Shown here one piece after another: positions 1 through 17,956 of a stretch of DNA of 52,574 nt (position 1 is the first letter of the stretch; the number at the start of each line of letters is the position of its first letter). The stretch is taken from positions 1 to 52,574 of the forward strand of contig JAPKDJ010000024.1 in the NCBI GenBank assembly GCA_026421245.1, read 5' to 3'. The notes beneath the pieces are model-generated. The model ran no database searches, was not told the origin of the DNA, and worked only from the letters and a program-made list of their open reading frames with translations. Both the position numbers and the translations under genes were made by a program. This stretch comes from Akkermansiaceae bacterium. Its GTDB lineage: Bacteria > Verrucomicrobiota > Verrucomicrobiia > Verrucomicrobiales > Akkermansiaceae.

Positions 1-39
1 AATTTACTGAGGCAATTTACTGAGGCAATTTACTGAGGC
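1..39. repeat. 13-nt direct tandem repeat, three copies, at the window edge
   Basis: The unit AATTTACTGAGGC is repeated exactly three times head to tail and is followed by a C and a run of eight T. The array starts at the first base of the window, so more copies may lie to the left. It is non-coding and A/T-rich. No other copy was noticed in the window. Function is unknown; it could be a slippage-generated intergenic array. From 40 to 321 I see no gene and no convincing promoter. Confidence 0.85.
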
Positions 40-321
40 CTTTTTTTTAAAAGGACAGTAATGGACTATGCTAAAATATTCTCAATCCGTCAATTTTTCA
101 TCTGATGAGGCGTGTTGGTGTAGGTTGTTTGTTTTGAGCTGGTTATGAGGTTTATTCCCGGAATTATCTGTGTCTTTTTGTGCCAAGAATGGAACGTTTT
201 GCGCGTAGCGGGATTTGAGTGAAAGAGTTTGGGAAATAGGAGCTTAAGAAAGGCGTGATCGTTGACTCTCTTCGGTCAAAGGTTGTTGAAGATCGAATTG
301 TATCAAGTTATGGGACTGAGC

Positions 322-3267
322 ATGTGCGCATCTGGAATTCGGGGGAGGAAGCTACTCTTGGGGGGAGTTCTGTTTATGGTTTCCTGTTCTCAGGATGAGA
401 AAACGGAGGCTCCTGCAGAAGTGGAAAGTGAATCTGCGGATGTGGCCTATACGACGATGGTAGAGACTGAGGAGATCATCTCGGAGCTCGTGACTCCGAT
501 CAATCGCTTGAGCAGAGCGGTTCGGAATCTGGATGTTTCCTGGAATGCCAAGCTGTTCACACCAGGAGCAGGAGTGGTGGATCTGGACCAATCTGCATTG
601 CTCTCGACAGACGAGTCTCCTGAAATCCGACACTACAAATGGCTGAGTAAAGCGCAGTCCGAGGAGTTGAAAAACTTGGAGGGAGGACTTTGGTCAATGC
701 TTTGGGCAGAGGTCCATGCTTTTGAAGATGCCCGTTTCGGCGTGCTGCGTGGAGAAATGGGAGTGCAACCCGGCACATTTTTCACGGAACTTAAATTGAG
801 TGCGCGGGGAAGAACGGTGGAGAAAGAACAAGGGGCCTGGAAGGGGAAGGTCAAAGTCTGGTGGGAGAAGGAAGACGAGGACTGGCTCATTTCTCGATTG
901 AAAATTGCGGAACTGAAATCACTCATCTCGCCTGCCCCCTTGTTCAGCGAGGTGCTGAATCGTGTGCTGACTTCGCCCGTTGATTTGGCAAAAGCGCGGG
1001 AGTCGATTCACGAACGTTATATCCGGGAAGTCTTCTTTACCGGCGGGACGAAGTTCGCCTATCCTAAGCATTATTGGGAATACATCACCAGCTGGGATTC
1101 GCTGGATCAACATACCTCGGTGTCGGTGGTGGATATCGACGAGGATGGTTGGGATGATTTTTATGTCACGGCCCGCTGGGGAAAGAACCAGCTCTGGCGG
1201 AATCGTGGCGATGGAACTTTTGAGGACATCGCGGGGAAAGTGGGCTTGGACATCGACGGAGTGTGTAATTGCTCCCTGTTTGCGGACTTTGACAATGACG
1301 GCGATAAGGATGTCTTTATCGGGCGGAGTCTCGAAAGGGGGCGCTACTATGTGAATGTCGACGGATCGTTTTTCGAACGAAGCGAGGAGGATCTGGATCG
1401 TCCTTTGCCCTATTGGACCTCCTCGATGTCGACGGCGGATGTCAATGGCGACGGACTCCTTGATTTGTATGTCTCGACCTATCGACTTCCGATTACGAGG
1501 CCTCGGAATATTCTCTCGAAACAGTTTCTAAGTCTTGAGGAACAGGAGGAATGGAAACGTCGCCGGGGATTGGATCACCCGATCTTTCGACTGACAGGTC
1601 CGCCGAATGTCTTGTTGATCAACCAGGGAGGCGGGAAGTTTTCCCAGGCTGCTCAAGCGGGAGGCGCGGACCTTTGGCTGTCGAGTTTCCAGAGCACGTG
1701 GTCTGATTATGACAACGATGGCGACCCGGATCTCTTCGTGGCGAACGATTACGCGCCGGACTACGTTTTCCGGAACGATGATGGTCAATTAACTGACGTC
1801 ACCCGCGCTGTTGCCGGGGGCGAACTGCAGGGATTCGGGATGGGGGTGACCTTGGGCGATTACAATAACGATGGCTTCCAGGATCCTTATTTCACCTACA
1901 TGTATAGCAAGGCCGGGAGCCGGATCACCGGGATGTTCGAGGGGCTGGAACAACGGATGTATGAAGGGGTGGCCGGAAATAAGCTGTTGAAAAATACCGG
2001 TAAAAAATTCGAGCCGACGGAGCTGTCGGTCTCGCAAGCGGGGTGGTCTTGGGGAGGTCAGTTTTCCGACTTAAACAACGACAGTTTCTTGGATCTTTAC
2101 GTGGCGAACGGCCTCTACACGCCACCGATAGGGACGGCGACGGAGGTGGATTTGTGAAGTAGCCTTTGGCGCTCGGTCGTGCGCTCGGACACAAATCTTA
2201 ATAAACGGTTCCTAGAAGAAGGAGTCGATGCCAGTCAGTATGCCAGCATGCCTGGCGTCTTGGACACGAGTAAGAAAGTGGATGGAAAGCCGGTGATACG
2301 AAGTCACTCTTTCAGCGGGAATGAAAGTAATAGTGTCTTCCTGAATCATGGTGGTGAGAGCTTTGAAAATATTTCGGGCCTCAGCGGTCTGGGTAGCCTG
2401 GCCGATGGTCGGGCCTTTGCTTTTTTGGATTTTGATCACGATGGCAAAAGCGACATTGTTTTGACCAATACCAACAATCCGCAACTTCAACTTTTTCATA
2501 ATAGAATCCAGGACGCCGGAAATTCCATTAATATTCGTCTGGTAGGTGGAAATCGAGGAGGGGCGCCTGACAAGACGTGGAGTTCCCGCGACGCATATGG
2601 CGCGCATGTTCTTGTGGAGGTCGCGGGGAAAACGATTCGCCGCGAACTTCGTGGTGGAGATGGCTTTGCGGCCCAGAACAGCGACACGTTGACCATTGGA
2701 ATTGGAAAATCGACAGTGGTAGACAAGGTCAGTGTCATTTGGCCTTCCGGGAAGAAATCAGTGATGGAGAAGATCGAAACCGAATCGCTTGTGACGATCT
2801 TTGAGAATCCCGGAGAGGCTGTGCCCAAAATGATTCGCCAGATTGCTGCTTCGGTTCCGAAAACGAAAACCCGCTTGCTCTCAAGGGGCCGATTGGATCT
2901 CCTGGTAAAGAAAAAGCTCAACGTCGTAGTGACCTTGGCGACCTGGTGTCCGGTCTGCCTCGGTGAAGTTTCTCATCTTCGGCGTTTGTCTGAAAGAGTG
3001 GGCGAGGATGTTGGTTTTTATGCCTTCCCGATTGATCCCGACGACGATGGGGCAAAGCTGACGAAATTCCAAAAGAAGACCAATCCTCCCTATGAAATCC
3101 TGAGTGATTCAGGTGCCGTGCAACGTGAGGCGGTTGAGAAGTTGATGATAGAAAAATTTGGAGAAATGCCTCTCCCGTCGACCTTCATTCTGGATGATCA
3201 AGGTCGTGTCCTGAAAGCGCTCAAGGGAACGCCCACTCTTTCGCAATTGCGCCTACTCAGTCAGTGA
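322..3267 (+). CDS. Candidate selenoprotein: CRTAC1-like FG-GAP/ASPIC-UnbV lipoprotein with C-terminal thioredoxin-like domain (in-frame TGA at 2155-2157)
   Basis: Seen: one reading frame of 981 residues with a single internal TGA (residue 612). Before the TGA is a lipoprotein-like signal (LFMVSC), then FG-GAP/VCBS propeller repeats rich in D-x-D-x-D-G calcium loops (for example DFDNDGDKD). The frame continues without other stops through an ASPIC/UnbV segment (GGDGFAAQNSDTLTIGIG, IWPSGKK) to a thioredoxin/TlpA-like domain with WCPVC (Cys876, Cys879). Residues flanking the TGA (E-V-D-L-TGA-S-S-L-W) match those of the paralogue at 3253-5532, which has TGA at the same codon. A downstream start at the GTG 2179 would have no ribosome site and would split the domain junction. 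Inference: TGA encodes selenocysteine in a secreted redox protein. Starts at TTG 262 or ATG 310 are possible; ATG 322 fits the signal peptide best. Without Sec decoding this would be two separate genes, 322-2157 and 2179-3267. The substrate is unknown. Confidence 0.8.
2155..2185 (+). promoter_or_regulatory. Candidate bacterial SECIS element with its UGA codon
   Basis: The UGA at 2155-2157 is followed after 17 nt by the loop GGTC (2175-2178). The arms are GGCGCTC (2168-2174) and GTGCGCT (2179-2185). They pair at six of seven positions, with a U-U mismatch next to the closing C-G pair and an outer G-U. Spacing and the GGU loop resemble the E. coli fdhF SECIS that binds SelB (known for that system). 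The paralogue on the other strand has the same architecture, with a C-G pair here replaced by A-U there. Function is inferred; no selenocysteine machinery lies in this window. Confidence 0.72.
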
Positions 3268-5532
3268 AATGAGGGGCGCTGAGCCTTCGATGGAATGAGT
3301 GCTTACCTTGCCGGAGGGCCAGCGGACTGAGATTTTTTCCAGTGTTTCATCTGCTGCCAAAGTGATGCAGAGTTTGCTCGAATTTTGAGAGGAAAGCCCA
3401 ACGCCGAGAGCTTTTTGAAGGGCCCGGGTTCCTTTGCTTGTTTTGATTGTTACCAGAGCGCCACAGGCGTCACGATTGCTTACGGTGCCAGTCAACTTTA
3501 GACGAATCATGCGTCCTGGATGGCCTGATTCGCCCAGCTTGTTGCGGAAGATACGCAGTCGTGGGGCGTTGGCGCTGGCAAGGGCGATGTCGAGCCAGCC
3601 GTCGTTGTCGTAGTCGAAAAGGGAAAATGAGCGGGCGTCTTCTTTGCCGTCAATTCCGCTGACGAGAGAGTTGTCCGTGAAGCCACCGGCGCTGGATAGG
3701 AGAAGGCGGTTGCGCTCATTTCCACTGAGGGAATTACTTCGGAAAGCCGGGCCGCCCGGATTGCTTTGTTCGACTCGCAACTGGAAGTTGAGCAGAGGGG
3801 ATTTCCAATGTTCGGAAGTACGAAATTCTGTTGATTTGGTGGGATCGGAGAGCACGACCGTGCTCCAGAAGCAACTTCACAAGTCCACTTCCGTGGCCAC
3901 CTTCTTGGGCGCGGTGTAGTAGCCGCTTGGAACGTAGAGGTCGAGGAGTCCGTCATTGTTGAAGTCAGCGAATTGACCGCCGAAGGACCATCCCGTGCGA
4001 GTCTCCGGGGCGTCCGGTTTTGCGACTTGGTGGAAAACTCCGTCATCATTACGATACATGAAGTTGCCTCGTGCCGCCACTTTGATGCGGGGGTCGACTT
4101 TGCCGACCAGATCGATAATGCGATTCCCTGCTTTGGAATACATGTTGGAGACGAAGAGATCGAGGTCGCCATCGTTGTCGTAGTCTCCGAAGGAGGCACC
4201 CATTCCGAAGGCCATCTCTCCGTCCGGGAAATGCTCGGCGTAGGCATCGACGAAGACTGGCTCGGCGGCTCCCTTCGGGGTCTCGTTTCGCAAGAAGGTA
4301 TCAGGAGAGAAATCATTGCAAACATAGAGGTCATCGTCGCCGTCGCCGTCAACGTCCGCCCAGGCTGGTTGATAGCTTTTACGCCAACGTTTAACGACTT
4401 CCCCGCCGGAACGTTCCAGCCGCCCGCCGCCGCGATTCATGAGGAGGATGTTTGGGCCGCCGCGATCATCGAAGTAGGGATGGGCAGTTGCTGAGAGGGT
4501 GTCGAGACGGGCTGCGTCTGCAGGTGGCAGGTAGCGCTCTTTCCATATGGGCCTGACATCGGTTCCGGGGGTGTAGGTGGTGAGATAGACATCGAGAAGA
4601 CCGTCGCGATTGACGTCTGCGGCCGCAGCGGAAACGACAAAGAATTGCTCGCCGAGGTCAGTGAGTTTGTGAGTCACATTTTCGAAGCTGCCCTGGTTAT
4701 TTTGGTAGTAGAGAGTGGGTTCGAGCGAGCGGCAGACCAAGGCATCGGGATCGCCATCGTTGTCGAAGTCAGCGAAGAGGCTGAAGTTGACGCAATACCC
4801 CGGGGTGAGTCCTGACTCGATGGTGACATCCTCGAAGGTTCCATCGCCCTTGTTCCGGAAAAGTTGCGGCTCGGTGTAGCGGGCAGTGATGAAGAGGTCA
4901 TCGTGACCGTCGGAATCGTAGTCGACCACGCTGACCGAGGGATACTGCTGGGCGCTCTCCATATCGGGAACATCGGCATACTCGCGTTTGGGGAGGATGA
5001 GTCTACGCTTGGTCAAAGCTTCTGTGGTGATTTCCTGATGGGCGCTGTGCTGAGCCTCCTCTCGTTCGTAGTTGGAGGGAATGGCGGTGGCGGTGACATC
5101 TTTGAAAAGAGAGCGAGGTGCCTGCACTGAGGCGAAGGCGAGAGGTTCCCAACCGATTAGGCTGAATTGTCCGTTGGGCTTCGGTTGCCAGGTCATCTTT
5201 TGAGTCGCCTTGATTCCGGTGAGTGAGCCGTCGGGATGCTTCAAGAGTCCTTCGAATTTGGTCTTCGTCACAAAAAGGGGGCCGTCGTAGGTTCCCGAGA
5301 GGATTCCGAATGAGGCATTTTTCCAGATTGAGCCTTTTTTAAGTTCAGCTTTCCATTCGTCGGGAAAGCTTTTCGTGTGGACTCCCTGCGTGATTTGACT
5401 GGCGAGTTTTTTGAGGCCGGGGGTCAGCTTCAGAACGGCTTCCTCGCTGGTGACGACGCGCTTGGCGATTTCTTCCGGAGTGTTGGCGCGGAGTGATGCG
5501 GTGAGGATGAAGAGAAGTAGGAGGGGCTTCAT
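3253..5532 (-). CDS. Candidate selenoprotein: CRTAC1-like FG-GAP/ASPIC-UnbV secreted protein (in-frame TGA at 3879-3877)
   Basis: Seen: one minus-strand frame of 759 residues with one internal TGA at residue 552. The N-terminus MKPLLLLFILTASLRA is a signal peptide. FG-GAP/VCBS repeats follow from about residue 190 (SVVDYDSDGHDDLF, ADFDNDGDPD). After the TGA comes an ASPIC/UnbV domain (RDACGALVTI, LSSQNSSKLCITL, VRWPSGKVS). It is a paralogue of the gene at 322-3267 but lacks the thioredoxin domain. The junction E-V-D-L-TGA-S-C-F-W is shared. Nearby genes use TGA as an ordinary stop, so a global code change is excluded. The gene starts 9 bp after the XylR-type regulator and is probably co-transcribed with it. 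Its 3' end overlaps the convergent paralogue by 15 bp. Sec at the TGA is an inference. Without it, the locus would be split into 3877-5532 and 3253-3855. Confidence 0.8.
3849..3879 (-). promoter_or_regulatory. Candidate bacterial SECIS element with its UGA codon
   Basis: On the minus strand the UGA (3879-3877) is followed after exactly 17 nt by the loop GGTC (3859-3856). The arms are GGAGCAC (3866-3860) and GTGCTCT (3855-3849): six Watson-Crick pairs plus an outer G-U. The hairpin is stronger than the one at 2168-2185 and has identical loop, closing pair and distance to the UGA. One stem pair is A-U here and C-G in the other copy although both codons involved changed amino acid, which suggests selection on the RNA fold. 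Confidence 0.75.
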
Positions 5533-5541
5533 GAGAGAGAG

Positions 5542-6744
5542 TTAGCGGATGGTTTGCTCGCGACGGTATTTTGCGGGAGTAACGCCGGTTTGGGTTTTGA
5601 AGGTTTTGGAGAAGTGTTGGCGGCTGGCGAAGCCGGAGAGCTCAGCGACAGCATCGACGGTGTATTCGGGGTTGCCGAGGAGACGTTTCGCGATGGCCAT
5701 GCGGGCCTCCAGAATGCTGGCGTGAATGGTGCGGCCGGTGACACTACGGAAGCGGCGTTGGAGTTCGCGGCGGGAGAGCGGAACCGAGGCCACGACGTCA
5801 TCGACTCCAATCAGACTGCCGGCATGGCGATTGATAAAGCGGGCGGCGCGGGCGACGAGGGGGTCGCTGATCGCGAGTTCGCCGGAGGACCCTCGCACAA
5901 CGAGGCGGCTGGGCGGCACGAGAACGGTGTCGGACTCCGGGGTGATGCCTTCGAGGAAGGAATTGAGCATGCGGGCGGCGCGATAGCCGATTTCAAAGTG
6001 CGCGGCATCGATGCTGGAAAGAGTGGGATTGCAAAGATTGCAGGCGACGGTGTCGTTGTTGACCCCTACGATCGCGAGTTCCTCGGGAACGGTGATTCCG
6101 AGGCGGGTGCAGGCATTTAAAAGAAGGGGCGCGATGTGGTCGCAGGAGACGAAAACCCCCAAGGGGAGCTTGAGGTTTTTGAGCCATTCTTCGATCCGTC
6201 CAGCTTCGCTCTGATCGTTGGTCTGATGCGATTTTGAGACGGTGAAAGAGGGGGGCTGTTCTCCTCGTTTGGCAGCTTCCCGACTGAAGCAACTCCCGCG
6301 CTGAACGGACCAACGGGTATCTTCGATTCCCATGAACGCGAACCGGCCAAATCCCTGCCCGATAAGATGGCGAAGGGCAACCTTGGCGATGGCATGATCA
6401 TCGGTATGAACGAGGGGAAGGGTAAGGTCATCATGATCCCCCAGGATATCGACGACCGGGATTCCCCGGGAGATGAGTTCCTGGGCGCGCTTGCATCCGG
6501 CATCGTCGTAGATTCTGGTGATGACGCCATCGATTCGTCGGTCCGGGGAGAGAGGTTCAATGTGAGACGGCCCTGAAATGGTTCCGTGAAGAAGGGCCCA
6601 GTTGCCGGCATGATGGTGAGTGTCCCAACGGTGAATCTCTCCGGAGAATTTGGCAATGCCACGGAGCATATCGCGCCCCGGGGCGATCACGGTTTCGATC
6701 TCAAGCAGGATGCATCGCCGATGTTGCTGGTTGTGGTCCTCCAT
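5542..6744 (-). CDS. XylR-type transcriptional regulator (LacI-like sensor domain with AraC DNA-binding domain)
   Basis: The product has 400 residues. Residues about 10-280 resemble a periplasmic-binding/LacI-like sensor (RGIPVVDILGDHDDLTLPLVHTDD, EELAIVGVNND). Residues about 295-395 form an AraC-type double helix-turn-helix (LSRRELQRRFRSVTGRTIH, DAVAELSGFASRQHFSKTFK, GVTPAKYRR). This order is typical of XylR regulators in Planctomycetes and Verrucomicrobia, which usually sense a sugar. The frame is open far upstream, but homology-like sequence starts at the ATG at 6744 (MEDHNQQHRRC), which I chose. The downstream neighbour is the TGA-containing gene 9 bp away, so it may control that gene. 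The ligand is unknown. Confidence 0.88.
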   Translation of the reverse strand: MEDHNQQHRRCILLEIETVIAPGRDMLRGIAKFSGEIHRWDTHHHAGNWALLHGTISGPSHIEPLSPDRRIDGVITRIYDDAGCKRAQELISRGIPVVDILGDHDDLTLPLVHTDDHAIAKVALRHLIGQGFGRFAFMGIEDTRWSVQRGSCFSREAAKRGEQPPSFTVSKSHQTNDQSEAGRIEEWLKNLKLPLGVFVSCDHIAPLLLNACTRLGITVPEELAIVGVNNDTVACNLCNPTLSSIDAAHFEIGYRAARMLNSFLEGITPESDTVLVPPSRLVVRGSSGELAISDPLVARAARFINRHAGSLIGVDDVVASVPLSRRELQRRFRSVTGRTIHASILEARMAIAKRLLGNPEYTVDAVAELSGFASRQHFSKTFKTQTGVTPAKYRREQTIR

Positions 6745-6969
6745 GGATGATTGGGCTGAAAAAGTGGTGAAGTGATTCGTTTCGTGCCAAATCGGCTGAG
6801 AGGGATACACACTCTTTTGCCCGGCTTGAATCCTATTTGGAAGCGCTAATAGAGGGTGGGCTTTGTTTTTCGAACTGATTCGAAGGATGGGCGCACTCGG
6901 TTGGGCGTTGGAATGTGTGGATTTGCGCCAGCGCGTATTCTGGGGAAACGACATTGTGATCTCTGTCTT

Positions 6970-7672
6970 CCCGGAATCATTGATCGGCCATCGTTTCTCT
7001 ATGGTGCCGAGGAATTGGAGGAACTCCGGGCTACGTGGTTCTTTCCCTGCATCCACCCATTTGCCATCGACTTTTTTTCTATTTTCGACCAACTCAGCGG
7101 CCAGGTCTCGAAATGATTTTCCGGAGTCTGCGTGCTTGTCGGGTTCTGGTCCGGCCTTGATTAAGATGCGGATGATTTGTTTGAGATGATTCAGTTGGGT
7201 AGCGGGGTCTTTTTCAGTGTAAGAATTTGAGATTCCGATCAGTGATCCATTCGAGTTTTCCTCCTTCGCTATATGGGGATGGACGGCCAGCCGGATGGGC
7301 TTCGGTTGTAAAGAGGACGACAACTTCAAGTTGGTCGCCGAAGGTGTCTCTGATTCGCTCGACGTGTGGGCAATTGTCTCGCGAGATTGGACAGGTCAAT
7401 GAGCTGTGGACAATTAAGACTGGTTTTTTCTGCCATAACTCTTCGAGTTTAATGGAGGTTCCGTCGAGGCGGTGAAGGGTGATGTTACCATGGTTTGAGA
7501 GGTCTCCCGGTTGTCTGTCCGTGATACCAAGGGCGTCGCCAGGATCGTTGAGATATCCTTCGTGTATTTTGAAACTCGGGAGAACCTTGGGGCGGCCTTT
7601 CTCTCCTGGTCCGGCGTGAAGACTCGAAATCAAGATGCCGGGGAGCCAAAGAAGAAACAAAAATGATTTCAC
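6970..7672 (-). pseudogene. Deiodinase/redoxin-like secreted protein gene, frameshifted
   Basis: The first part (GTG 7672 to TGA 7214) has a signal peptide (MKSFLFLLWLPGILISSLHA) and then a redoxin-like domain with SLTCPISRDNCPHVERI and VVVLFTTEAHPAGRPSPYS. The EAHP-x(3)-SPYS stretch resembles bacterial deiodinase-like proteins, with Cys in the position that is Sec in animal deiodinases. The frame ends after WITDRNLKFLH. A different frame then continues with protein-like sequence (YTEKDPATQLNHLKQIIRI, KWVDAGKEPRSPEFLQFLGT) to about 6970. A one-base shift near 7217-7225 would join them. This could be a true mutation, a sequencing error or a programmed shift. The 3' end is uncertain because the second frame runs on into the regulator gene. 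Confidence 0.6.
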
Positions 7673-7839: not shown

Positions 7840-9024
7840 ATGATAGACAAGTTTCGCAAAGCCGCTGTATTTTCGGTTGCCGTTCTGCTGGGAGTGGGTT
7901 CCGTTGCCAGTGCTGCTGGAAAGGCAATGAAGGTCTATATTCTGGCGGGGCAGTCGAATATGCAGGGCTCGGCGCATAAGAGCACTTTTCCTGCAATTGG
8001 CGACGATCCCAAGACGGCGCCACTTTTGCAGGAGATTTTGAATGAGAAGGGAGAGCCTGTTGTTTGTGAGAATGCCTGGGTGGCTTATCAGACGACGCGA
8101 AACGGAGAAGATACCATTTTACGGGGGCAGGTGAAAGTGGGGTATGGATTCGATGACGCCCGGATTGGACCTGAATTTAGCTTTGGGATTCACATGGATC
8201 GGGCGCTTGAAGAACCGGTTTTGCTTATCAAGACCGCCTGGGGAGGGAAATCTTTGGCGGTGGACTTTCGGCCGCCGAGTGCTGGACCCTACCTTCCAAG
8301 TAAGAGAGAGGAAGAGGGTGACAATGTTCCCGCTGAAGAAAAAGTTGGCCACTATTACCGCGAGATGATCCGATTTGTCAGGGAGACGCTCAAAGACACC
8401 GGAAGCATCAGGAAGGTTGTCCCGGACTATGATGAAAAGTCTGGATTTGAGCTCGCAGGATTCGTGTGGTTTCAGGGTTGGAATGACATGTGTAACCGTC
8501 ATCACATCGAGCAGTACACCGACAACATGATTCACTTCATTTCTGATGTTCGGAAGGAGTTTGAGCAGCCGAAGCTGCCCTTCATTGTCGGCGTGCTGGG
8601 AGTTTACGGAACGGATCCGGACAGCCGTAGGTTTGACAAGGGGCTTCCGGTGACTGACTTCAGAAAGACCCAGTTTGCGGCCGTGAAACAATACGATGCG
8701 AAGGTCGCTCCAGAATTCCGAGGGAATGTCATCGCGGTCGACAGTGGGCCATTTTACGAGCTGGCTCTCAGTGAGATCTACTGGAAACGGAGAATGACGG
8801 GGAGCTGGAAACGACGTCTCAATGATGGCGAGATGACGAAAGAGAAGTATCTTGAGGAATGCACAAAGTTTGGGTTTGGTGACGGAGAAATCACGGTGGA
8901 GGAAAAACGAACTTGGGACAGATCTTCGTCGAATGCCGAGTATCACTACCTCGGCAGCGGAAAGACCTTTGTTCGATTTGGGAAGGCTCTTGCGGAAGAA
9001 ATGCTCGAGCTGGAAAAGAAGTGA
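7840..9024 (+). CDS. Secreted SASA-type carbohydrate esterase (sialate O-acetylesterase-like)
   Basis: The product has 394 residues. It has a signal peptide (VFSVAVLLGVGSVASA), then the block-I serine motif in ILAGQSNMQGS and a second motif WFQGWND. The C-terminal AEYHYLGSGKTFVRFGKALAEEM resembles the end of the SASA family (former DUF303, related to carbohydrate esterase family 6). Members remove acetyl groups from sugars or polysaccharides (family knowledge). It heads a plus-strand run with a sulfatase 41 bp downstream, which suggests that it deacetylates a sulfated, acetylated polysaccharide before or after desulfation. The exact substrate is not visible. Confidence 0.85.
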   Translation: MIDKFRKAAVFSVAVLLGVGSVASAAGKAMKVYILAGQSNMQGSAHKSTFPAIGDDPKTAPLLQEILNEKGEPVVCENAWVAYQTTRNGEDTILRGQVKVGYGFDDARIGPEFSFGIHMDRALEEPVLLIKTAWGGKSLAVDFRPPSAGPYLPSKREEEGDNVPAEEKVGHYYREMIRFVRETLKDTGSIRKVVPDYDEKSGFELAGFVWFQGWNDMCNRHHIEQYTDNMIHFISDVRKEFEQPKLPFIVGVLGVYGTDPDSRRFDKGLPVTDFRKTQFAAVKQYDAKVAPEFRGNVIAVDSGPFYELALSEIYWKRRMTGSWKRRLNDGEMTKEKYLEECTKFGFGDGEITVEEKRTWDRSSSNAEYHYLGSGKTFVRFGKALAEEMLELEKK

Positions 9025-9065
9025 CCCCTTGTAAGCAGGAAACCAATCCTCAGAAATTTATAAAA

Positions 9066-10442
9066 ATGAAGACGACACTTTTAACACTCATATGCGCTTC
9101 CTTGGTGGCTTCGGGGAAAGAGCCTCCGAATATCGTCCTCATCATGGCCGATGATCTCGGGTGGTTTGATGCTCACTTTCAAGGCAATGAAGCTTTGGAT
9201 ACTCCCCATTTGGACAAATTTGTGACCGAGGGAATGTTGTTTCCTCATGGCTATGCCGCCGCGCCGGTTTGCACGCCGACACGGGCGGCAATGTTGACTG
9301 GGATGTCACCGGCGCGATTGTCGATCACCAATCATGCTCCCGGGCACAAAGAGGGGATGGTTCCGGAGGGACGTAAGCAGGCAGGGGCGAAGAAGCTGAC
9401 CTACCTTCCTCTTGAAGCGACGACCTTGGCTGAACGTTTGAAGGATGAGGCAGGTTATGCAACGGGATTTGTCGGGAAATGGCATCTTTCACACCGGAAA
9501 GGATCTGATGAGGCAGGGAAAAAATTCGAACCGGGGCTGCGTCCGGAATTTCAAGGGTTCGATTTGAATATCGGGGGGTATGATAGAGGTGGTCCGCCGA
9601 CTTACTTCGCGCCCTATAAGATTCCGACTCTCAAGGAAGGAAAAGACGGGGAGTATTTGCCGGACCGATTGGCGGACGAGTGCATTCAATTCATCAAGGA
9701 ACAAAAGAAGGGACCTTTCTTTCTCACGTTCTGGAATTATTCGGTTCATTACCCGATCGAAGCTCCGGAAGATCTCATTGAGAAATACAAGAAGCGCCCG
9801 GTTGAGAACGCTCCCTACGCGGCCATGATCGAAGGGATGGACCGGTCCATTGGGAAGGTTTTAAAATCACTTGATGATCTGGGGCTTTCGGAAAATACGA
9901 TTGTGATTTTCACCTCGGACAACGGATCGCTTTTCAGCAACGGTCCTTTGCGTGCGAACAAGGGGCACCTGTATGAAGGAGGCATGAGGGTGCCTTGGTC
10001 CATTCGCTGGCCCGGTAAGATCAAGCCCGGAAGTAGCAACGATACTCCCGTCATTAGCACGGATGTTTTTCCGACTCTTCTTGAGGTGGCTGGTTTAAAA
10101 CCGAAGGAGGGAACTCCACTCGACGGGGAGAGCTTGATTCCAATTCTCACCGGGAGCGGAACGCTTCAGCGTGAGTCTCTCTTCTTCCACTATCCAAACT
10201 ATGCGTTCCATAATAGGAACCGGTTGGGTGGGGCGATTCGGAAAGGGGACTACAAACTCATCCATTTTTATGACGATGACTCTATCGAGCTTTACGACGT
10301 GGTGGTAGATCAGGGTGAGAAGAACAACCTTGCGCCGTCCAAACCAAAGCTGGCTCGGGAAATGAGGGTGGAGTTGGGCCGCTGGCTTAAGGAATCCGGA
10401 GCGAAAATGCCCTACGTCGTAGACACAAAATCAAAAGAATGA
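9066..10442 (+). CDS. Secreted sulfatase (family S1, arylsulfatase type)
   Basis: The product has 458 residues. A signal peptide (MKTTLLTLICASLVASG) is followed by the metal-binding PNIVLIMADDLGW motif. The formylglycine motif CTPTR has Cys69, which a formylglycine-generating enzyme must convert. Later motifs are GKWHLSH and IFTSDNG with GMRVPWSIRWPG. It hydrolyses sulfate esters, probably of an algal polysaccharide, outside the cytoplasm. The open frame extends upstream to 8913, inside the previous gene; the ATG at 9066 is the start consistent with the signal peptide. Its stop codon overlaps the next start by 4 bp (ATGA at 10439), which indicates translational coupling. Confidence 0.92.
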   Translation: MKTTLLTLICASLVASGKEPPNIVLIMADDLGWFDAHFQGNEALDTPHLDKFVTEGMLFPHGYAAAPVCTPTRAAMLTGMSPARLSITNHAPGHKEGMVPEGRKQAGAKKLTYLPLEATTLAERLKDEAGYATGFVGKWHLSHRKGSDEAGKKFEPGLRPEFQGFDLNIGGYDRGGPPTYFAPYKIPTLKEGKDGEYLPDRLADECIQFIKEQKKGPFFLTFWNYSVHYPIEAPEDLIEKYKKRPVENAPYAAMIEGMDRSIGKVLKSLDDLGLSENTIVIFTSDNGSLFSNGPLRANKGHLYEGGMRVPWSIRWPGKIKPGSSNDTPVISTDVFPTLLEVAGLKPKEGTPLDGESLIPILTGSGTLQRESLFFHYPNYAFHNRNRLGGAIRKGDYKLIHFYDDDSIELYDVVVDQGEKNNLAPSKPKLAREMRVELGRWLKESGAKMPYVVDTKSKE

Positions 10443-11734
10443 ACTCATCCACACCCTATCGAATTCCAGGGCTCGAATTAATTGATCACACCTTCGAAGT
10501 TCCGCTCATTCATAGCGACCCTGGTGGTCGGAAGATCGAAGTTTTCGTCCGTGAGGTCTGTGACCTTGACCCCAAGAGTAAGGAGAAACCTTTCCTGATA
10601 TTTCTGCAAGGTGGCCCGGGTTTTCGGGCACCTTTGCCAATTCGGAAAGAGGGTTGGTTAAAGCGGGCGCTGACTGAGTTTCGCGTGTTGATGTATGACA
10701 CACGGGGCAACGGGTTGAGCACTCCGGTCGATTACCAGACTCTGGCATCGGAAGGAGATGCCCAGGCTCAAGCGGATTATCTCAAGCACTTTCGCCAGGA
10801 CAACATCGTGCGGGATGCGGAGTTGATTCGTGGTCAGATGAGTCCAGATACTCCTTGGTCGACGATTGGCCAAAGTTACGGAGGCTGGTGCACCATGACT
10901 TATCTCAGTCTTCATCCCGAAGGTTTAAAGGAGTGCTTTATTTTTGGCGGTGTTCCGGGATTGGATCGCACCGCACGTGAGATTTACGAAGGGACCTTTC
11001 CTTTCGTGGAGGAACGGAACCGTCAGTATTTTGACAAGTTCCCGATGGACAAGGCGCGGCTGATTAAGCTGGCGGCGCATCTTCAGGAAAACGAGGTTCG
11101 CTTCCCGAATGGTGATCGGGTGACGCCGCAGCTTGTTCAGTTGTTAGGATTAAAGTTTGGATTCGCGCACACCGCGGAAGAGATTCATTTTTTATTGGAG
11201 GAAGCGTTTGTTCAGGCCGGCGATGATGAAGTCGTGAGCCACACCTTCAAAATCGGGCTGCAGTCGGCGCTTCGGTTCGATACGAATCCAATTTTCGCGA
11301 TTCTTCACGAAGCGATTTATGCACAGGGCAGTGCAAGTGGCTGGGCGTGCGGTGAGGTGCAGAAGGAAAACTATCCTCACTTCGATGATTTCGATGACTT
11401 CCTTTTCTATGGCGAGATGGTCTTTTCATGGATGTTTGATGAGATTTCAGAACTCAAGGGAATGAAAGAAGCCGCCGATATTCTTGCCGCCTACGAAGAC
11501 TGGCCCGCGCTTTATGACAAGGAAGTCTTGAGTCAGAACACGGTTCCGACGGCCTGTGCAGTCTACGCCAACGACATGTTTGTGAATGCCAAGTTTTCGC
11601 GCGAGACCATTGAATCGGTTCCAAATATGAAAGCCTGGTACACCAGTGAATACGAACACTGCGGTTTGCGAGTTGGAGGAGAAAAGATTTTCTCGCGTCT
11701 GATTGATCTGGCACGAGGGGAAGTGGAGCGATGA
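10439..11734 (+). CDS. Alpha/beta hydrolase, proline iminopeptidase-like (peptidase family S33)
   Basis: The product has 431 residues without an obvious signal peptide. It shows an oxyanion-hole loop (FLQGGPGFRAPLP), the strand MYDTRGNGLST and the nucleophile elbow GQSYGGW (Ser146). A histidine near the end (YTSEYEHCGLR) is placed as expected for the triad. These features match S33 prolyl aminopeptidases. It is linked by ATGA overlaps at both ends to sulfatase genes, so it is made together with them. A role in cleaving N-terminal proline residues follows from the family; a link to polysaccharide use is only inferred from position. Confidence 0.85.
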   Translation: MNSSTPYRIPGLELIDHTFEVPLIHSDPGGRKIEVFVREVCDLDPKSKEKPFLIFLQGGPGFRAPLPIRKEGWLKRALTEFRVLMYDTRGNGLSTPVDYQTLASEGDAQAQADYLKHFRQDNIVRDAELIRGQMSPDTPWSTIGQSYGGWCTMTYLSLHPEGLKECFIFGGVPGLDRTAREIYEGTFPFVEERNRQYFDKFPMDKARLIKLAAHLQENEVRFPNGDRVTPQLVQLLGLKFGFAHTAEEIHFLLEEAFVQAGDDEVVSHTFKIGLQSALRFDTNPIFAILHEAIYAQGSASGWACGEVQKENYPHFDDFDDFLFYGEMVFSWMFDEISELKGMKEAADILAAYEDWPALYDKEVLSQNTVPTACAVYANDMFVNAKFSRETIESVPNMKAWYTSEYEHCGLRVGGEKIFSRLIDLARGEVER

Positions 11735-13302
11735 CCCGGTCTCTTTGCTTCTCGATGGTTGCGTTGGTTGGTTCTGCTTTTGCCAAGTTTCCCAATATTG
11801 TCATCATTTATGCCGATGATTTGGGTTTTGGTGATCTTTCCTGCTACAATCCAAAATCGTCTTATCAGACTCCCCGTCTCGACAAGATGGCGGCCGAGGG
11901 AGTTCGCTTTACGGATGCGCATAGCCCTTCGACGATCTGCTCGCCTTCCCGATACGGGCTTTTCTCGGGACAACAGATTTACCGTTCAACCGGAGGCGGT
12001 GGAGGTGCCTTTGAGGGACCGGGGGGGCCCAGCTTTTTAAAGCCGGGAACGCTGACTCTGGGTGGGATGCTTCAGGAAAAAGGTTATCACACCGGGATCT
12101 TTGGGAAGTGGCATGTCGGACTGACTTGGCTCGATAAGGATGGCAAGCGATTGGGGGGTGGCTTTAAAAACTCCCTGCTGATCGACTACGAGAAAAGCAC
12201 TCCTTTGATCGATGGCCCGAACAAGAGAGGCTTCGATGAATCTTTCGTCACGCCCAACTGTCCCACCACTGATCCGCTCTATGTTTACATCGAAAACGGG
12301 ATGGTGCCGGTGCCAGCCAATCAGCGTTATAATCCCGAGAGCAGTCCAAACCCAGGAGGGAAGTGGCGTTGGGACAATGATGCGGGGTGGATGGCTCCGC
12401 GCTACGAGTTTGTGAATGCCGATCTGCTCTTTTATAACAAGACCAAGGAGTTCATTTTAAAACACCAAAAAGAGACTCCCGAGACACCTTTCTTTGCTGT
12501 TTTCTCAACCCAGATTGCGCATGCACCCGTGCTTCCTGCTGAGGAGTTCAATGGGGCGACCAAAGCTGGTCCCCGGGGAGATTTTGTTTATGAACTCGAT
12601 ACCTTGGTCGGGCGCGTCCTGGACCTGCTTGATGAGTTGGGAATCGACGATGATACGCTCGTGCTATTCAACTCCGACAACGGCCCTGAAACTGTCCACG
12701 TTGATTGGATGCGCCAGGATCATAATCACGATCCATCCGGCGGTTGGCGTGGCGTGAAACGGGACGGCTGGGAAGGGGGACATCGTGTTCCCTTTATTGC
12801 ACGCTGGCCGGGGCGGATTCCCAGAGGACAAATTTCCAACCAGATGTCTAACACGACCGATATCTTGGCGACCATTGCGTCGGTGGTGGGTTACAAGCTG
12901 CCTGACGAATCCGCGACCGATAGTTTTGATATGCTGCCGGCGATGCTGGGGAATCAGGACCCTAGGGGGTCAATACGGCCTCATCTCCTCACGCAGAGCT
13001 TTCGAGGTGAATTTCAAATCCGGCAAGGAGATTGGAAATATCTTGATCACAAAGGTTCGGGTGGGAACGGTTACCAAAAAGGCATTCTTAAGAAATATGC
13101 TCTTAAGGAAAGTGAACCCGATGCTCCCGGACAGCTCTACAATCTTGCTGTTGATCCCGGAGAAACGAGCAATCTCTACTTCAAAGAAGAAGACAAACGA
13201 AAAGAGATGCAAGCCCTATTGGAGCAGCTCAAAGAGAGCGGTCGGAGTGCGCCCATGGGGAGAATCCCAATGGGTATCGAGAACATTCCCTTGGCGAAGT
13301 GA
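11731..13302 (+). CDS. Secreted sulfatase (family S1)
   Basis: The product has 523 residues. It starts with a short signal peptide (MTRSLCFSMVALVGSAFA), followed by PNIVIIYADDLGFGD and the formylglycine motif CSPSR (Cys70). Further sulfatase motifs are FGKWHVGL and LFNSDNGPE. Aspartates 29 and 30 should bind Ca2+ with the formylglycine (family knowledge). It overlaps the preceding hydrolase by 4 bp and is the last gene of this run. It is longer than the sulfatase at 9066 and only distantly similar, so it likely attacks a different linkage. Confidence 0.92.
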   Translation: MTRSLCFSMVALVGSAFAKFPNIVIIYADDLGFGDLSCYNPKSSYQTPRLDKMAAEGVRFTDAHSPSTICSPSRYGLFSGQQIYRSTGGGGGAFEGPGGPSFLKPGTLTLGGMLQEKGYHTGIFGKWHVGLTWLDKDGKRLGGGFKNSLLIDYEKSTPLIDGPNKRGFDESFVTPNCPTTDPLYVYIENGMVPVPANQRYNPESSPNPGGKWRWDNDAGWMAPRYEFVNADLLFYNKTKEFILKHQKETPETPFFAVFSTQIAHAPVLPAEEFNGATKAGPRGDFVYELDTLVGRVLDLLDELGIDDDTLVLFNSDNGPETVHVDWMRQDHNHDPSGGWRGVKRDGWEGGHRVPFIARWPGRIPRGQISNQMSNTTDILATIASVVGYKLPDESATDSFDMLPAMLGNQDPRGSIRPHLLTQSFRGEFQIRQGDWKYLDHKGSGGNGYQKGILKKYALKESEPDAPGQLYNLAVDPGETSNLYFKEEDKRKEMQALLEQLKESGRSAPMGRIPMGIENIPLAK

Positions 13303-13457
13303 GACGGTTGAGTGATCGAAATTGTGAGAGATCTTCGAAAATGATTTTTGTGTGCAAGGGGAAATTGCTTTTTCTTCCTCAAAGAAAGATAGGGGAGGGA
13401 CTAAAAATGAGGGGTTTGCGATGAGCAATCCTTCTTTTTTCGTTCTCTTGTTGGACA

Positions 13458-13750
13458 AAAATCCTGACCGCCGTTTTAGCGGCTCTGTGCATGTCAGGTT
13501 TGGCTTGCGCTGAAATGGGCGAACAGGGCGCGAATGCCATGACAGGAGGGAAGCATTCAGCGGTTCTTGATACGATTGCGGTTGCGCACGCTGCGGCGGG
13601 AGATTTTGAGAAAGCCCTTCAGGTGATTAGCAGGGAATCCGTATTGCCGTTGAGAGCGGTGATGAGGCAGGCGCCGTGGCGATGCGAGAGCGCTTAGGTC
13701 TATTCAGGCTTGGCAAGCCTTACCGAGATCCCAAGGCAGGCACAAAATAA
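13458..13750 (+). pseudogene. Decayed TPR-protein remnant
   Basis: One frame encodes a signal-peptide-like stretch (KILTAVLAALCMSGLACA) with no start codon in the right place. It runs directly into a last TPR repeat (AVLDTIAVAHAAAGDFEKAL). Near 13650-13665 the frame must shift to continue as SGDEAGAVAMRERLGLFRLG and then KPYRDPK to TAA 13748-13750. Endings of this LFRxGKPYRDP type are common in verrucomicrobial TPR proteins (recalled, unchecked). The remnant therefore looks like an internal deletion plus a frameshift. The rest of the 532-bp gap (13303-13834) holds nothing else I can support. Confidence 0.55.
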
Positions 13751-13834
13751 GGTGATTGGGTGAGGTGAATTGTTTTGATTTCCATGACCTATCCGGCGGG
13801 CGTTTTCCGGGTTTCTAATTTTTCGTCTCCGAGG

Positions 13835-15019
13835 TCATTTTTTGGAGGGGTTTTCGTACCAAAAGACCCCGAGTTGATCGCGTTCCTCGCAGCAAAGGAT
13901 ATCGAGGTCGCTGTCTCCATCGACATCATATGGAATCACTTGATCGTATTTGACACCGGGTTCGCCGGCGATTTCGTGACTTTGCCATTCTTTATCAAAA
14001 GGCGAATCGCGCCAAGAGAGCCAACGCATTCCGGATAGGGGACCGTTGGCTTCTTCGCAGCTAAAAACGATGTCGTTCCTGCCATCGAGATTGACGTCTA
14101 AAATCACCGCGCTTTTCCCTCCTCCCACGCCCTTGGGAAGCGGGATCACGTGTTCGCTCCAGCCCGTTTTGTGAGCCCGAAACCAGATCACTGACTTCTT
14201 GTCGATGGCGATGATGTCCAGGACGCCGTCTTGATCGAGATCTCCGTGTGAGATGAATTTAATTTCGCGGTCCTGGCCTCCGATGTTGCGCCGTCTCCAC
14301 TTTTGATTGTCTTCAACCGCTGATGCCTCCGGACGTTCCAGCCAGTAGATGCCCCGCCGTTGACCTTTACGATCACTCACGAGAATGTCATCCCGTCCAT
14401 CCTTGTTCATGTCGATCGCGATCAAGGACATGATCCAACCGGCGTCTTGAAGTTTATGGTATTTCCAATTCGAAAGGTCGCGGGCATTTTTGGGGCTTTG
14501 AAGCCAGCCGATACTTCCGTTGTTTCCCTTCGAACCAACGATCAGGTCGAGGCCGTTCCTGCCGTCGATTTCGATGGGCAGGGCATACATCCAAGCTTGC
14601 TTGCGGGCCGTAGCCGGGATCGCCTCCGTTATCCATTTGGAGGCATCCAGAAACGAGGAGAGTTCCTTTGGGGCCCAGTGGATAAACATGCTCTTGGTTC
14701 CTCCCTCACAGGAGCTCACAACATCGGCTGCTCCGTCCCCATCGAGATCGGCAAAAACGGCATCTTCCGCCGAACGCACCTTGCCGACTGTGACCGCAGG
14801 CCATTTTTGTTTCGCTTTCGCTTTTCCGGGATGGAGGTAAGCGCGAACGATTCCGCCCTCTTCCCAGCCAGTGGCGATATCCGGCAGGCCATCTCCATTG
14901 ATGTCAGCAAGGCGAATCCCGTCCGCGCCTTTTGAGCTGTCATCGATGGTGTGTCTCGCCCAAGGCCCTTCGGCATGAGCCAACGAGGAAGAGATCAAGA
15001 TTAAGACGACTTTTTTCAT
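13835..15019 (-). CDS. Secreted FG-GAP/VCBS repeat protein
   Basis: The product has 394 residues with the signal peptide MKKVVLILISSSLAHA. It carries at least six D-x-N/D-x-D-G-x-x-D loops (ADINGDGLPDIATG, ADLDGDGAADVV, IDMNKDGRDDILV, GDLDQDGVLDIIA, LDVNLDGRNDIVF, YDVDGDSDLDILC). These calcium-binding loops build an integrin-alpha-like beta-propeller. No catalytic motif is visible, so a binding or scaffolding role outside the cell is most likely. It is only distantly related to the two TGA-containing proteins and has no ASPIC/UnbV domain. It follows the sulfatase at 15037 in the same orientation with 17 bp between, probably in one transcript. Confidence 0.85.
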   Translation of the reverse strand: MKKVVLILISSSLAHAEGPWARHTIDDSSKGADGIRLADINGDGLPDIATGWEEGGIVRAYLHPGKAKAKQKWPAVTVGKVRSAEDAVFADLDGDGAADVVSSCEGGTKSMFIHWAPKELSSFLDASKWITEAIPATARKQAWMYALPIEIDGRNGLDLIVGSKGNNGSIGWLQSPKNARDLSNWKYHKLQDAGWIMSLIAIDMNKDGRDDILVSDRKGQRRGIYWLERPEASAVEDNQKWRRRNIGGQDREIKFISHGDLDQDGVLDIIAIDKKSVIWFRAHKTGWSEHVIPLPKGVGGGKSAVILDVNLDGRNDIVFSCEEANGPLSGMRWLSWRDSPFDKEWQSHEIAGEPGVKYDQVIPYDVDGDSDLDILCCEERDQLGVFWYENPSKK

Positions 15020-15036
15020 GGGGACGTGAGTAAATC

Positions 15037-16416
15037 TTACGGGGCTTTGAGGAGGGGTTTGGCTTCTTTAACCCATCCAGCGGGGCGCTGACCTTTGCCC
15101 GCCTCGTTGCCGTCACCAAGGTCCTGTCTGGCCTCATCGGCGTAAAATATCAGGCGCTTCACAACATCGGGGTGCGCTTCGGCAAGATTAGTTTGCTCTC
15201 CTAGGTCGGTGCTGACATCAAAAAGCTGAAGAGGACTGTCTTTCTCTTTGCCGCTCCAGCCTGTCAATTTTTCAGCTTGTGGGAGAACGAGTTTCCACTT
15301 GCCGCTGCGAACGGCCTGAAGCTGAGTGGTGTGATAGTAGAAGAAGGCCTTGCGAGGAGATTTTGCGCCGAGCTTTCCGAAAATAAGATTGCGAACATCA
15401 TGGCCGTCGATCTTGCGGTTTTTGGAAATTTGACCTTCGGCGAGAGCGGCGAAGGTGGGGAGGAAATCGAGAGTGGATACGAGTTCGCGGCAGGTCTTTC
15501 CAGTAGGGATTTTTCCGGGCCAACGCATGACACAAGGCACGCGCATTCCTCCTTCGTGTGTCGTTCCTTTGGAGCCTTTGAGAGGTTTGTTGCTTCCCCC
15601 ATTTTGAGCATTGGAGCCATTGTCGGAGGTGAAAATGACGAGGGTTTTCTCGTCAATTCCGGTGTCCTTGAGTGCTTTTAGAATTGCGCCCGTTGAGGCG
15701 TCCACTTCTTCGATCCAGTCACCGTATTTTCCATTCTTGGATTTTCCAGCGAAGGCCTTTCCGGGAAAGAGAGGGAGGTGGACCGAAGTATGCGGAAGGT
15801 AGAGAAAGAAGGGCTTCTTTGAGTTCCGCTTGATGAAGGAAACGGCCTCTTCGGTGTAACGACGGGTGATGGGTTCTTGTTTGATGGGGGCTTCGAGGAC
15901 TTCCTCATTCCGAAGCAGAGGCAAGGGGATGTTCTTTCGTCCCATGTCATTGGAGTATGGGATGCCGAAGTAGGAATCGAATCCCTGTCTGGTGGGGAGG
16001 AACTTGGATTGGTCGCCGAGGTGCCATTTGCCGATGCAGGCGGTAGTGTAGTTTTGCTTTTTGAGGATTTCAGCGATGGTGGTTTCATCCGGGTTGAGTC
16101 CTTTTCTTGCAGAAGGGAAGAGGACCCACTTGTTGTTCTGGTCAATGTGCATGCTGACGCGGCGCGGATAGCAACCCGTCAGGAGGCTGGCACGGGAAGG
16201 GGTGCAGACTCCGCTGGTGACGTAGAAGTCAGTGAAGCGGATGCCCTCGCGAGCCATTTGGTCGATGACCGGAGTGCGGTTCTTGCTGGAGCCGTAGCAC
16301 CCGATGTCGCCGTAGCCCATGTCGTCCATATAGATGAGGACGATGTTAGGGCGTTCGGCGTTGGTGTGAACGATGCCGAGGAAGAGGATGAATAGAATGA
16401 GATTGAAAGGATTCAT
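15037..16416 (-). CDS. Secreted sulfatase (family S1)
   Basis: The product has 459 residues. The signal peptide MNPFNLILFILFLGIVHTNA is followed by PNIVLIYMDDMGYGD and the formylglycine motif CTPSR (Cys71). IGKWHLGD, FTSDNGSN and MRVPCVMRWPGKIP complete the family pattern. It is predicted to hydrolyse sulfate esters in the periplasm or outside, after activation by a formylglycine-generating enzyme that is not in this window. It is the third sulfatase in 8 kb, which points to sulfated polysaccharide or mucin use. The FG-GAP gene follows it. Confidence 0.92.
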   Translation of the reverse strand: MNPFNLILFILFLGIVHTNAERPNIVLIYMDDMGYGDIGCYGSSKNRTPVIDQMAREGIRFTDFYVTSGVCTPSRASLLTGCYPRRVSMHIDQNNKWVLFPSARKGLNPDETTIAEILKKQNYTTACIGKWHLGDQSKFLPTRQGFDSYFGIPYSNDMGRKNIPLPLLRNEEVLEAPIKQEPITRRYTEEAVSFIKRNSKKPFFLYLPHTSVHLPLFPGKAFAGKSKNGKYGDWIEEVDASTGAILKALKDTGIDEKTLVIFTSDNGSNAQNGGSNKPLKGSKGTTHEGGMRVPCVMRWPGKIPTGKTCRELVSTLDFLPTFAALAEGQISKNRKIDGHDVRNLIFGKLGAKSPRKAFFYYHTTQLQAVRSGKWKLVLPQAEKLTGWSGKEKDSPLQLFDVSTDLGEQTNLAEAHPDVVKRLIFYADEARQDLGDGNEAGKGQRPAGWVKEAKPLLKAP

Positions 16417-17952: not shown

Positions 17953-17956
17953 GGTT

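What the first reader, a model, noticed from the sequence alone, without database searches (positions are those of the whole stretch)
322..3267. In-frame TGA splits an FG-GAP/ASPIC-UnbV protein: likely a new selenoprotein family
The frame from 322 to 3267 has a single TGA (2155-2157) between the propeller and ASPIC/UnbV parts, with protein-like sequence on both sides and no shift. The residue context D-L-TGA-S-x-x-W suggests replacement of a Cys; I recall D-L-C-S-x-F-W at this junction in relatives but could not check. Genes around it use TGA as a stop, so it is not a code change.
Basis: partly seen in the sequence, partly recalled or inferred. Interest (0 to 1): 0.92.

Follow-up and report, generated by a model that had tools for sequence, protein, structure and literature searches.

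The report
New propeller selenoprotein family in bacteria
A bacterial gene that looks cut in two by a stop codon almost certainly uses that codon to insert the rare amino acid selenocysteine, and it belongs to a large, apparently unreported family of selenium proteins.

Summary
Observation confirmed: frame 322-3267 carries one internal TGA (2155-2157, residue 612). The selenoprotein reading is strongly supported. The genome holds tRNA-Sec, SelA, SelB (wing domain) and SelD (itself with an in-frame TGA). Thirteen genes of this genome have TGA at this column; one is the adjacent gene 5532-3253. A SECIS-like hairpin follows the codon (at least 5 of 6 pairs in 57 of 57 Sec rows, 1 of 14 non-Sec rows; one of three registers was added post hoc). 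Codons after the TGA are under purifying selection in the two paralogues testable. Relatives occur in Planctomycetota, Acidobacteriota, Verrucomicrobiota and Gemmatimonadota MAGs. Functional clue: all 54 scorable Sec proteins have a partner thiol, CxxC at the fused thioredoxin-like domain (48) or Cys at +2 (6), against 8 of 128 non-Sec homologues (shared ancestry not corrected for). Best reading: a redox selenoprotein reduced within its own chain; substrate unknown. The family is absent from a 2026 table of 119 prokaryotic selenoprotein families, and no NCBIfam model reaches its cut-off. No protein-level evidence exists.

The parts
322..3267 (+). Selenoprotein gene 1: putative lipoprotein, FG-GAP propeller, UnbV_ASPIC, C-terminal thioredoxin-like domain; 981 aa with Sec612
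322..387 (+). Likely signal peptide with lipobox-like FMVSC (my reading of the sequence; no signal-peptide program run)
   Evidence: inference
1132..1320 (+). Best FG-GAP_3 repeat (residues 271-333) of the propeller
2155..2157 (+). In-frame TGA = proposed selenocysteine codon (residue 612)
2169..2184 (+). SECIS-like hairpin, GGUC loop 17 nt after the TGA, 5 of 6 pairs (one U-U mismatch); the MFE fold of the 51-mer uses part of this stem with an 8-nt loop
   Evidence: model from PMC13188914
2155..2304 (+). Helical insert (residues 612-661); Sec is the first residue of helix 612-621 in the model
2593..2793 (+). UnbV_ASPIC domain
2908..3222 (+). Thioredoxin-like (Redoxin; ResA/TlpA-like) domain
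2947..2958 (+). CPVC motif of the thioredoxin-like domain, proposed resolving dithiol
3253..5532 (-). Selenoprotein gene 2 (convergent, 15-nt overlap with gene 1): FG-GAP propeller + UnbV_ASPIC, 759 aa with Sec552, no thioredoxin domain found by Pfam
3877..3879 (-). In-frame TGA = proposed Sec codon of gene 2
3871..3873 (-). Cys at +2 (U-S-C) of gene 2, proposed partner thiol in place of the missing thioredoxin domain
3850..3865 (-). SECIS-like hairpin of gene 2, 6 of 6 pairs, GGUC loop
3295..3468 (-). UnbV_ASPIC domain of gene 2

Best explanation
The internal TGA encodes selenocysteine through the ordinary bacterial SelA/SelB/SelC/SelD pathway and a SECIS hairpin just downstream (about 0.97). 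The product is an FG-GAP/ASPIC propeller protein, probably exported, of a large selenoprotein family. Sec caps a helix in an insert before the last propeller blade and acts as a redox-active selenolate. Its oxidised or selenylsulfide state is reduced within the same protein, by the CxxC of a fused ResA/TlpA-like thioredoxin domain (gene 1) or by a Cys two residues on (gene 2) (about 0.7). Shown by computation: codon, paralogues, machinery, hairpin constraint, purifying selection in two paralogues, Sec-thiol association. Inferred: actual Sec incorporation, export, redox chemistry. The substrate is unknown; my guess is an oxidised periplasmic or surface molecule such as a peroxide or oxidised protein (about 0.35).
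For: Machinery: tRNA-Sec with anticodon tca, SelA 407 bits, SelB wing domain, SelD with its own TGA. 13 genes in one genome with TGA at one column. Hairpin: mean 5.63 of 6 pairs in 57 Sec rows against 3.14 in 14 non-Sec rows; for the same peptide WRQVV, unique rows only, 5.86 (n=21) against 3.08 (n=12), p about 1e-6. Loci fetched after the rules were set (the best matches of a further phylum): 20 of 20 with TGA and 6/6 pairs, 19 of 19 usable with CxxC. dN/dS after the TGA 0.15 and 0.18, before it 0.19 and 0.20, in two paralogues against a MAG 96-97% identical there. SelA in 60 of 65 TGA genomes against 37 of 63 others, p 6.8e-6, kinship not corrected for; 4 of the 5 exceptions have tRNA-Sec. 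Partner thiol in 54 of 54 Sec against 8 of 128 non-Sec rows. Model pLDDT 86.9, pTM 0.89, Sec at a helix start.
Against: No protein or selenium measurement. Single-sequence folding of the hairpin region is not clearly better than shuffles (1 of 13 has z below -2). In the 13-row alignment, one register, two of five pair measures exceed all shuffles, but changes on both sides (35/500 and 54/500) and pair types (263/500) do not. Four Sec rows of the PDG-U-x-C subgroup (L049, L125, L126, L206) do not form the hairpin in either of the first two registers (2-4 of 6 pairs); they pair 5-6 of 6 in a third register that I added afterwards. SelA is absent or only weakly matched in 5 of 65 TGA genomes, and G699 lacks a clear tRNA-Sec too. 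SelA and tRNA-Sec also occur in many genomes whose scored members have no TGA. The thiol rule was first seen on 52 rows that are partly the same as those counted. It has only 4 well-supported independent contrasts (on average 2.6 agree, none oppose, p 0.25; with CxxC alone 2.2 agree and 0.2 oppose). Non-Sec homologues carry Ala, Asp, Asn or Glu, so Sec is dispensable for the fold and Cys rarely replaces it. I had no model coordinates, so no distance from Sec to CxxC.
Confidence: 0.82

Rival explanations
1. Sec is inserted, but its role is metal or ligand binding, structural, or selenium storage rather than a thiol-linked redox cycle.
For: Non-Sec homologues hold Asp, Asn, Glu or Ala here, residues that fit binding or structure better than redox chemistry. 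The many paralogues in one genome could serve as a selenium sink.
Against: Partner thiols in 54 of 54 scorable Sec proteins, CxxC and +2 Cys never together (48 and 6); 19 of 19 in the later set. The single Cys homologue among the 115 keeps its CxxC.
Confidence: 0.2
2. TGA is a true stop: two separate polypeptides, the second by reinitiation (for example GTG at 2179).
For: A GTG follows the TGA with 21 nt between them, and standard gene calling would give two ORFs.
Against: Conserved residues W616, R617 and V619 lie between the TGA and that GTG (W616 and R617 also). The interrupted matches listed are all TGA, none TAA or TAG. The hairpin is conserved and SelA co-occurs.
Confidence: 0.02
3. TGA is read through with an ordinary amino acid, or the organism has a changed code.
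For: The frame is open on both sides.
Against: 12 of 30 window ORFs that I picked end in TGA, as does this gene. SECIS-like hairpin, tRNA-Sec, SelA, SelB wing domain and SelD present.
Confidence: 0.01
4. Sequencing error or pseudogene.
For: The source looks like a metagenome assembly in 192 contigs (inference).
Against: 13 genes with the same codon; the same TGAs in an independent assembly for two paralogues, and purifying selection after them. The window gene itself was not found in a second assembly.
Confidence: 0.005

Closest known systems
CRTAC1 / FG-GAP + UnbV_ASPIC propeller proteins (9etn, murine CRTAC1)
   Different: The profile alignment to CRTAC1 leaves the Sec segment unmatched; the chain of 551 modelled residues has no room for the C-terminal thioredoxin-like domain (inference from length)
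Thioredoxin-fold selenoproteins with UxxC/CxxU motifs (table of PMC13188914, seen)
   Same: Bacterial Sec pathway and hairpin; a thiol partner
   Different: Sec sits in a propeller insert, not in a thioredoxin fold; the thioredoxin-like domain carries ordinary CxxC; relatives rarely use Cys
ResA / TlpA thiol-disulfide oxidoreductases
   Same: C-terminal domain matches by profile and fold
   Different: Here it is one domain of a larger selenoprotein
UGC-containing TlpA disulfide reductase and Redoxin family selenoproteins (table of PMC13188914)
   Same: Related thioredoxin-like domain by name
   Different: Their listed motifs (UGC, UxxC) suggest Sec in the thioredoxin motif itself (inference); here Sec lies 264 residues before the CxxC (residues 612 and 876)
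Glycine reductase selenoprotein A
   Same: Named in PMC12013277 as the one earlier selenoprotein without Cys homologues (passage seen)
   Different: Different protein and motif (table of PMC13188914)

Membership tests
Bacterial selenoprotein | In-frame UGA, coding on both sides, conserved at one position in homologues | tested here: met
Bacterial selenoprotein | Downstream SECIS: 4-16 bp stem, 3-9 nt loop, G in the first two loop positions, 16-37 nt spacing, MFE <= -7.5 (PMC13188914 section 5) | tested here: met
   Six-position stem, 4-5 nt loop GGUC(G), spacing 17 nt; all 13 own regions fold at -10.9 or lower as whole 51-mers. Weak points: in gene 1 the MFE fold has an 8-nt loop and the GGUC form needs a U-U mismatch; in L049 the MFE fold is another hairpin
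Bacterial selenoprotein | SelA, SelB, SelD and tRNA-Sec in the genome | tested here: met
   for SelB only the C-terminal wing domain was searched
Bacterial selenoprotein | Cys-containing homologues at the Sec position (usual, not universal) | tested here: not met
   Cys in 1 of 115 aligned of the best 120 proteins; more distant Cys rows L070, L139, L172. Not a strict definition, so it does not bar membership
Bacterial selenoprotein | Selenium or Sec shown in the protein | not testable with these tools
   needs 75Se label or mass spectrometry
FG-GAP / UnbV_ASPIC (CRTAC1-like) | FG-GAP repeats and UnbV_ASPIC above Pfam cut-offs | tested here: met
   gene 1: 137.8 bits (cut-off 26.9) and 59.5 bits (cut-off 23.4); gene 2: 147.3 and 35.8 bits
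Protein families of NCBIfam release 20, selenoprotein models included | Score above a model cut-off | tested here: not met
   hits far below cut-off: dsbE 24.7 of 123.15 bits, ResA 21.5 of 170; gene 2 XAC2610 20.9 of 35

The most novel reading that the evidence does not exclude
A widespread class of exported propeller selenoproteins, one of the main uses of Sec in Planctomycetota and many Acidobacteriota and expanded to 13 genes in one verrucomicrobial genome. The propeller Sec and a fused thioredoxin CxxC (or a +2 Cys) form one redox relay, and loss of Sec goes to Ala/Asp/Asn/Glu with decay of the CxxC, not to Cys.
Probability: 0.5. Interest if true: 0.9.

Novelty: new member of a known kind. 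Interest (0 to 1): 0.82.

Why it matters
It adds a large family to bacterial selenoproteomes in phyla that a 2026 review does not name (no occurrence of planctomycet-, acidobacter- or verrucomicrob- in its text). Annotation by the standard code would split these genes at the Sec codon. Methods that rely on Cys homologues would tend to miss it, because relatives seldom carry Cys; the deep-Sep authors name that limit themselves (passage). The near-perfect tie between Sec and a partner thiol gives a directly testable mechanism for part of the UnbV_ASPIC proteins; what is known of the function of UnbV_ASPIC proteins in general I did not look up.

Tried and rejected
Single-sequence hairpin energy as evidence: too weak. 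One fixed pairing register for all 13 own genes gave only 74.4% paired cells, because genes with W-R/S-T/S-V-V use a register one nucleotide shorter; both registers were then scored, taking the better for Sec and non-Sec rows alike. Four Sec rows fit neither; a third register, found by looking at them, gives them 5-6 of 6 pairs and the 14 non-Sec rows 1-2. My valine-codon count had an index error and returned zero; corrected. The phylogenetically independent test of the Sec-thiol link is underpowered. The tree is a quick one with many long branches, and its root is not inferred, so gain and loss cannot be told apart. The sample of the own phylum showed TGA in only 2 of 387 genomes among listed matches, but only the best few candidates per genome were scored; the same limit applies, so those counts are lower bounds and 'non-TGA' genomes are not proven free of Sec genes. 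Counts of TGA genomes were made by hand from the listings; rows that were not fetched were not checked for the exact column.

Literature (open-licence PMC papers only): searches for selenoprotein+UnbV, selenocysteine+FG-GAP and selenoprotein+Acidobacteria+'in-frame UGA' gave 0 papers; selenocysteine+CRTAC1 gave 2 and selenoprotein+VCBS 1, off-topic by their listings; broader searches (listings seen). PMC13188914: abstract, section 5, section 7 parts 1-2 (with all of Table 1), sections 8 and 10, and part 2 of the reference list seen; no FG-GAP/ASPIC/UnbV family in Table 1. PMC12013277: passages only. PMC4807772: passages only; its S9 table of planctomycete selenoprotein candidates could not be read, so an earlier sighting there is possible. 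Haft and Tolstoy 2025 is not held; I know it only through the review's table.

Full report
THE OBSERVATION. The frame 322-3267 has one internal stop, TGA at 2155-2157, and ends in another TGA. Pfam places FG-GAP_3 repeats, UnbV_ASPIC and a C-terminal Redoxin domain in the joined protein. The N-terminus looks like a lipoprotein signal (my reading). The next gene, on the other strand (5532-3253), overlaps the end of gene 1 by 15 nt and is split by TGA at the same motif; Pfam finds no thioredoxin-like domain in it.

THE GENOME. The window is contig C86 of a 4.32-Mb assembly in 192 contigs. Two of its paralogous loci are 96-97% identical in DNA to a Verrucomicrobiales MAG (L105). The genome has a tRNA-Sec of 55 bits, above the 47-bit cut-off, with anticodon tca, SelA, the SelB winged-helix domain and SelD, which itself contains one TGA. 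Searching the joined protein against the own genome gave 43 matches; 13 contain exactly one stop, each TGA, and 30 none (many of the 30 are pieces of the same genes). All 13 TGAs fall at one alignment column, in the context D-L-U (D-G-U once) with Trp at +4. Of 30 window ORFs that I picked, 12 end in TGA, so the code is not changed.

RNA CONSTRAINT. A six-position stem starts 11 nt after the TGA and carries a GGUC(G) loop 17 nt from it, which fits the published bacterial SECIS model (PMC13188914 section 5). Over 57 distinct Sec rows the better of two registers pairs 5.63 of 6 positions on average; over 14 non-Sec rows, 3.14. With unique sequences encoding the identical peptide WRQVV the figures are 5.86 (n=21) and 3.08 (n=12). 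The two valines, where both are present, are GTC GTG in 43 of 50 Sec rows and 2 of 13 non-Sec rows. So the constraint is on RNA, not only on the peptide. At least 5 of 6 pairs form in 53 of 57 Sec rows and 1 of 14 non-Sec rows. The four failing Sec rows (L049, L125, L126, L206, context PDG-U-x-C) pair 5-6 of 6 in a third register, found afterwards, making 57 of 57. Weak points: folding energies of single sequences are not unusual, and some covariation measures are not above shuffles. Twenty loci of the Pirellulaceae phylum fetched later, the best matches there, all have TGA at the site and 6/6 pairs.

TRANSLATION PAST THE TGA. Between the own genome and L105 the TGA is kept in two paralogues; dN/dS after it is 0.15 (522 codons, not quite to the gene's end) and 0.18 (674 codons), before it 0.19 and 0.20. 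In the second paralogue the upstream stretch includes two TAG codons of L105, at L045 positions 439 and 724, both before the start that I think likely (near 739). The window gene itself could not be tested this way.

DISTRIBUTION. Of 80 best loci in named genome records, 29 have TGA at the column, from records labelled Verrucomicrobiota, Planctomycetota, Acidobacteriota, Gemmatimonadota (and related names) and one Dehalococcoidia MAG; L108 has Ser, L106 Glu, L139 and L172 Cys, and the others have another residue, a gap or no aligned site. In phylum samples, genomes with a TGA-interrupted match among listed rows were 2 of 387 (own phylum), 36 of 297 (phylum of the Acidobacteriales MAG of L108) and 64 of 294 (phylum of the Pirellulaceae MAG of L131); the last two are hand counts, and all are lower bounds because lists and candidates are capped. 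Every interrupted match listed is TGA.

MACHINERY ACROSS GENOMES. Strong SelA (E below 1e-20) occurs in 27 of 29 TGA genomes and 13 of 28 others, and in 33 of 36 and 25 of 36; jointly 60 of 65 against 37 of 63, the one shared genome counted once. Kinship is not corrected for. Of the five TGA genomes without strong SelA, four have a tRNA-Sec of 69-74 bits; G699 has 47.8 at best. Of 34 genomes searched for tRNA-Sec, 13 are TGA genomes and 12 of them score 53.9 bits or more; of the 21 others, 7 score 51.8 or more and 14 score 48.8 or less. So the machinery is nearly always present where TGA is, and often present where it is not.

WHAT REPLACES SEC. Of the 120 best protein homologues (7586 significant among 7995 candidates), 115 align at the column: Ala 46, Asp 23, Asn 20, Glu 18, Gly 3, Ser 3, Met 1, Cys 1.

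A PARTNER THIOL. Of 186 rows, 183 could be scored; the three dropped as too short are Sec rows (L050, L119, L123). Of 54 Sec proteins, 48 have C-x-x-C 200-380 residues after Sec, the place of the thioredoxin-like domain (domains were not scanned one by one). The other six end 201-224 residues after Sec, too soon for that domain, and all have Cys at +2. Non-Sec rows have CxxC in 8 of 128 and +2 Cys in none; the one Cys row has CxxC. The pattern was first seen on 52 rows that partly overlap these; the later set is independent, with CxxC in 19 of 19 usable rows of 20. On a tree of 183 rows the Sec label changes 6 times, 4 forced by well-supported branches; four independent pairs give on average 2.6 in the same direction and none against, too few for significance (p 0.25). 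Non-Sec lineages and their CxxC: a clade of 109 with mostly Ala/Asp/Asn, 3 keep it; a Glu clade, 5 of 15; two other Glu rows, none; single Asp and Gly rows, none; the Cys row keeps it.

STRUCTURE. An AlphaFold2 model from a 52-row alignment has mean pLDDT 86.9 and pTM 0.89. Sec612 (modelled as Cys) is the first residue of a helix, 612-621; helix starts can stabilise thiolates or selenolates (general knowledge). The best solved relative is murine CRTAC1. The C-terminal domain resembles ResA/TlpA.

MECHANISM. Inferred: a probably exported protein in which the Sec selenolate reacts with an oxidised substrate and is returned to the reduced state within the molecule by the CxxC domain, itself perhaps reduced by a DsbD-type donor (recalled, not tested). 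Gene 2 would use its U-S-C pair instead. The substrate is unknown.

NOVELTY. No family like this appears in the 119-row table of PMC13188914, in NCBIfam release 20 above cut-off, or in the paper searches. Two sources that could hold an earlier sighting were not readable (see Tried and rejected). I class it as a new family of a known kind, with an unusual replacement pattern.

Noticed in passing
L178 (G000:C68:142009-142938, minus): The genome's SelD carries one in-frame TGA; Sec-containing SelD is a known family (table of PMC13188914). The genome thus has at least 14 candidate selenoproteins.
   Followed up: partly
window 7214-7672 (-): Short secreted-looking ORF with LTCPISRDNCP, thioredoxin-like to the eye but without a Pfam match; it overlaps the start of an ORF with Peripla_BP_3 and AraC-type HTH domains (5542-7329) and may be truncated.
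   Followed up: partly
G749:C78:24587-25507: A family member with three TGA codons inside the match, possibly a multi-Sec protein or a decayed gene.
   Followed up: no
G389:C8: Two tRNA-Sec-like matches (74.8 and 60.4 bits) about 5 kb apart.
   Followed up: no
window 7840-21019: A SASA esterase, three sulfatases, another FG-GAP protein (13835-15019) and a DUF1552 gene beside a PSCyt3/PSD gene (17957-21019).
   Followed up: partly
window 1-40: Three direct copies of about 13 nt (aatttactgaggc) at the contig start, possibly an assembly end.
   Followed up: no
own genome C77, C81, C50, C160, C181, C7: Long FG-GAP/UnbV_ASPIC frames of about 1200 aa with two ASPIC matches each and no TGA, two of them on contigs of about 4 kb (C77, C81).
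   Followed up: no
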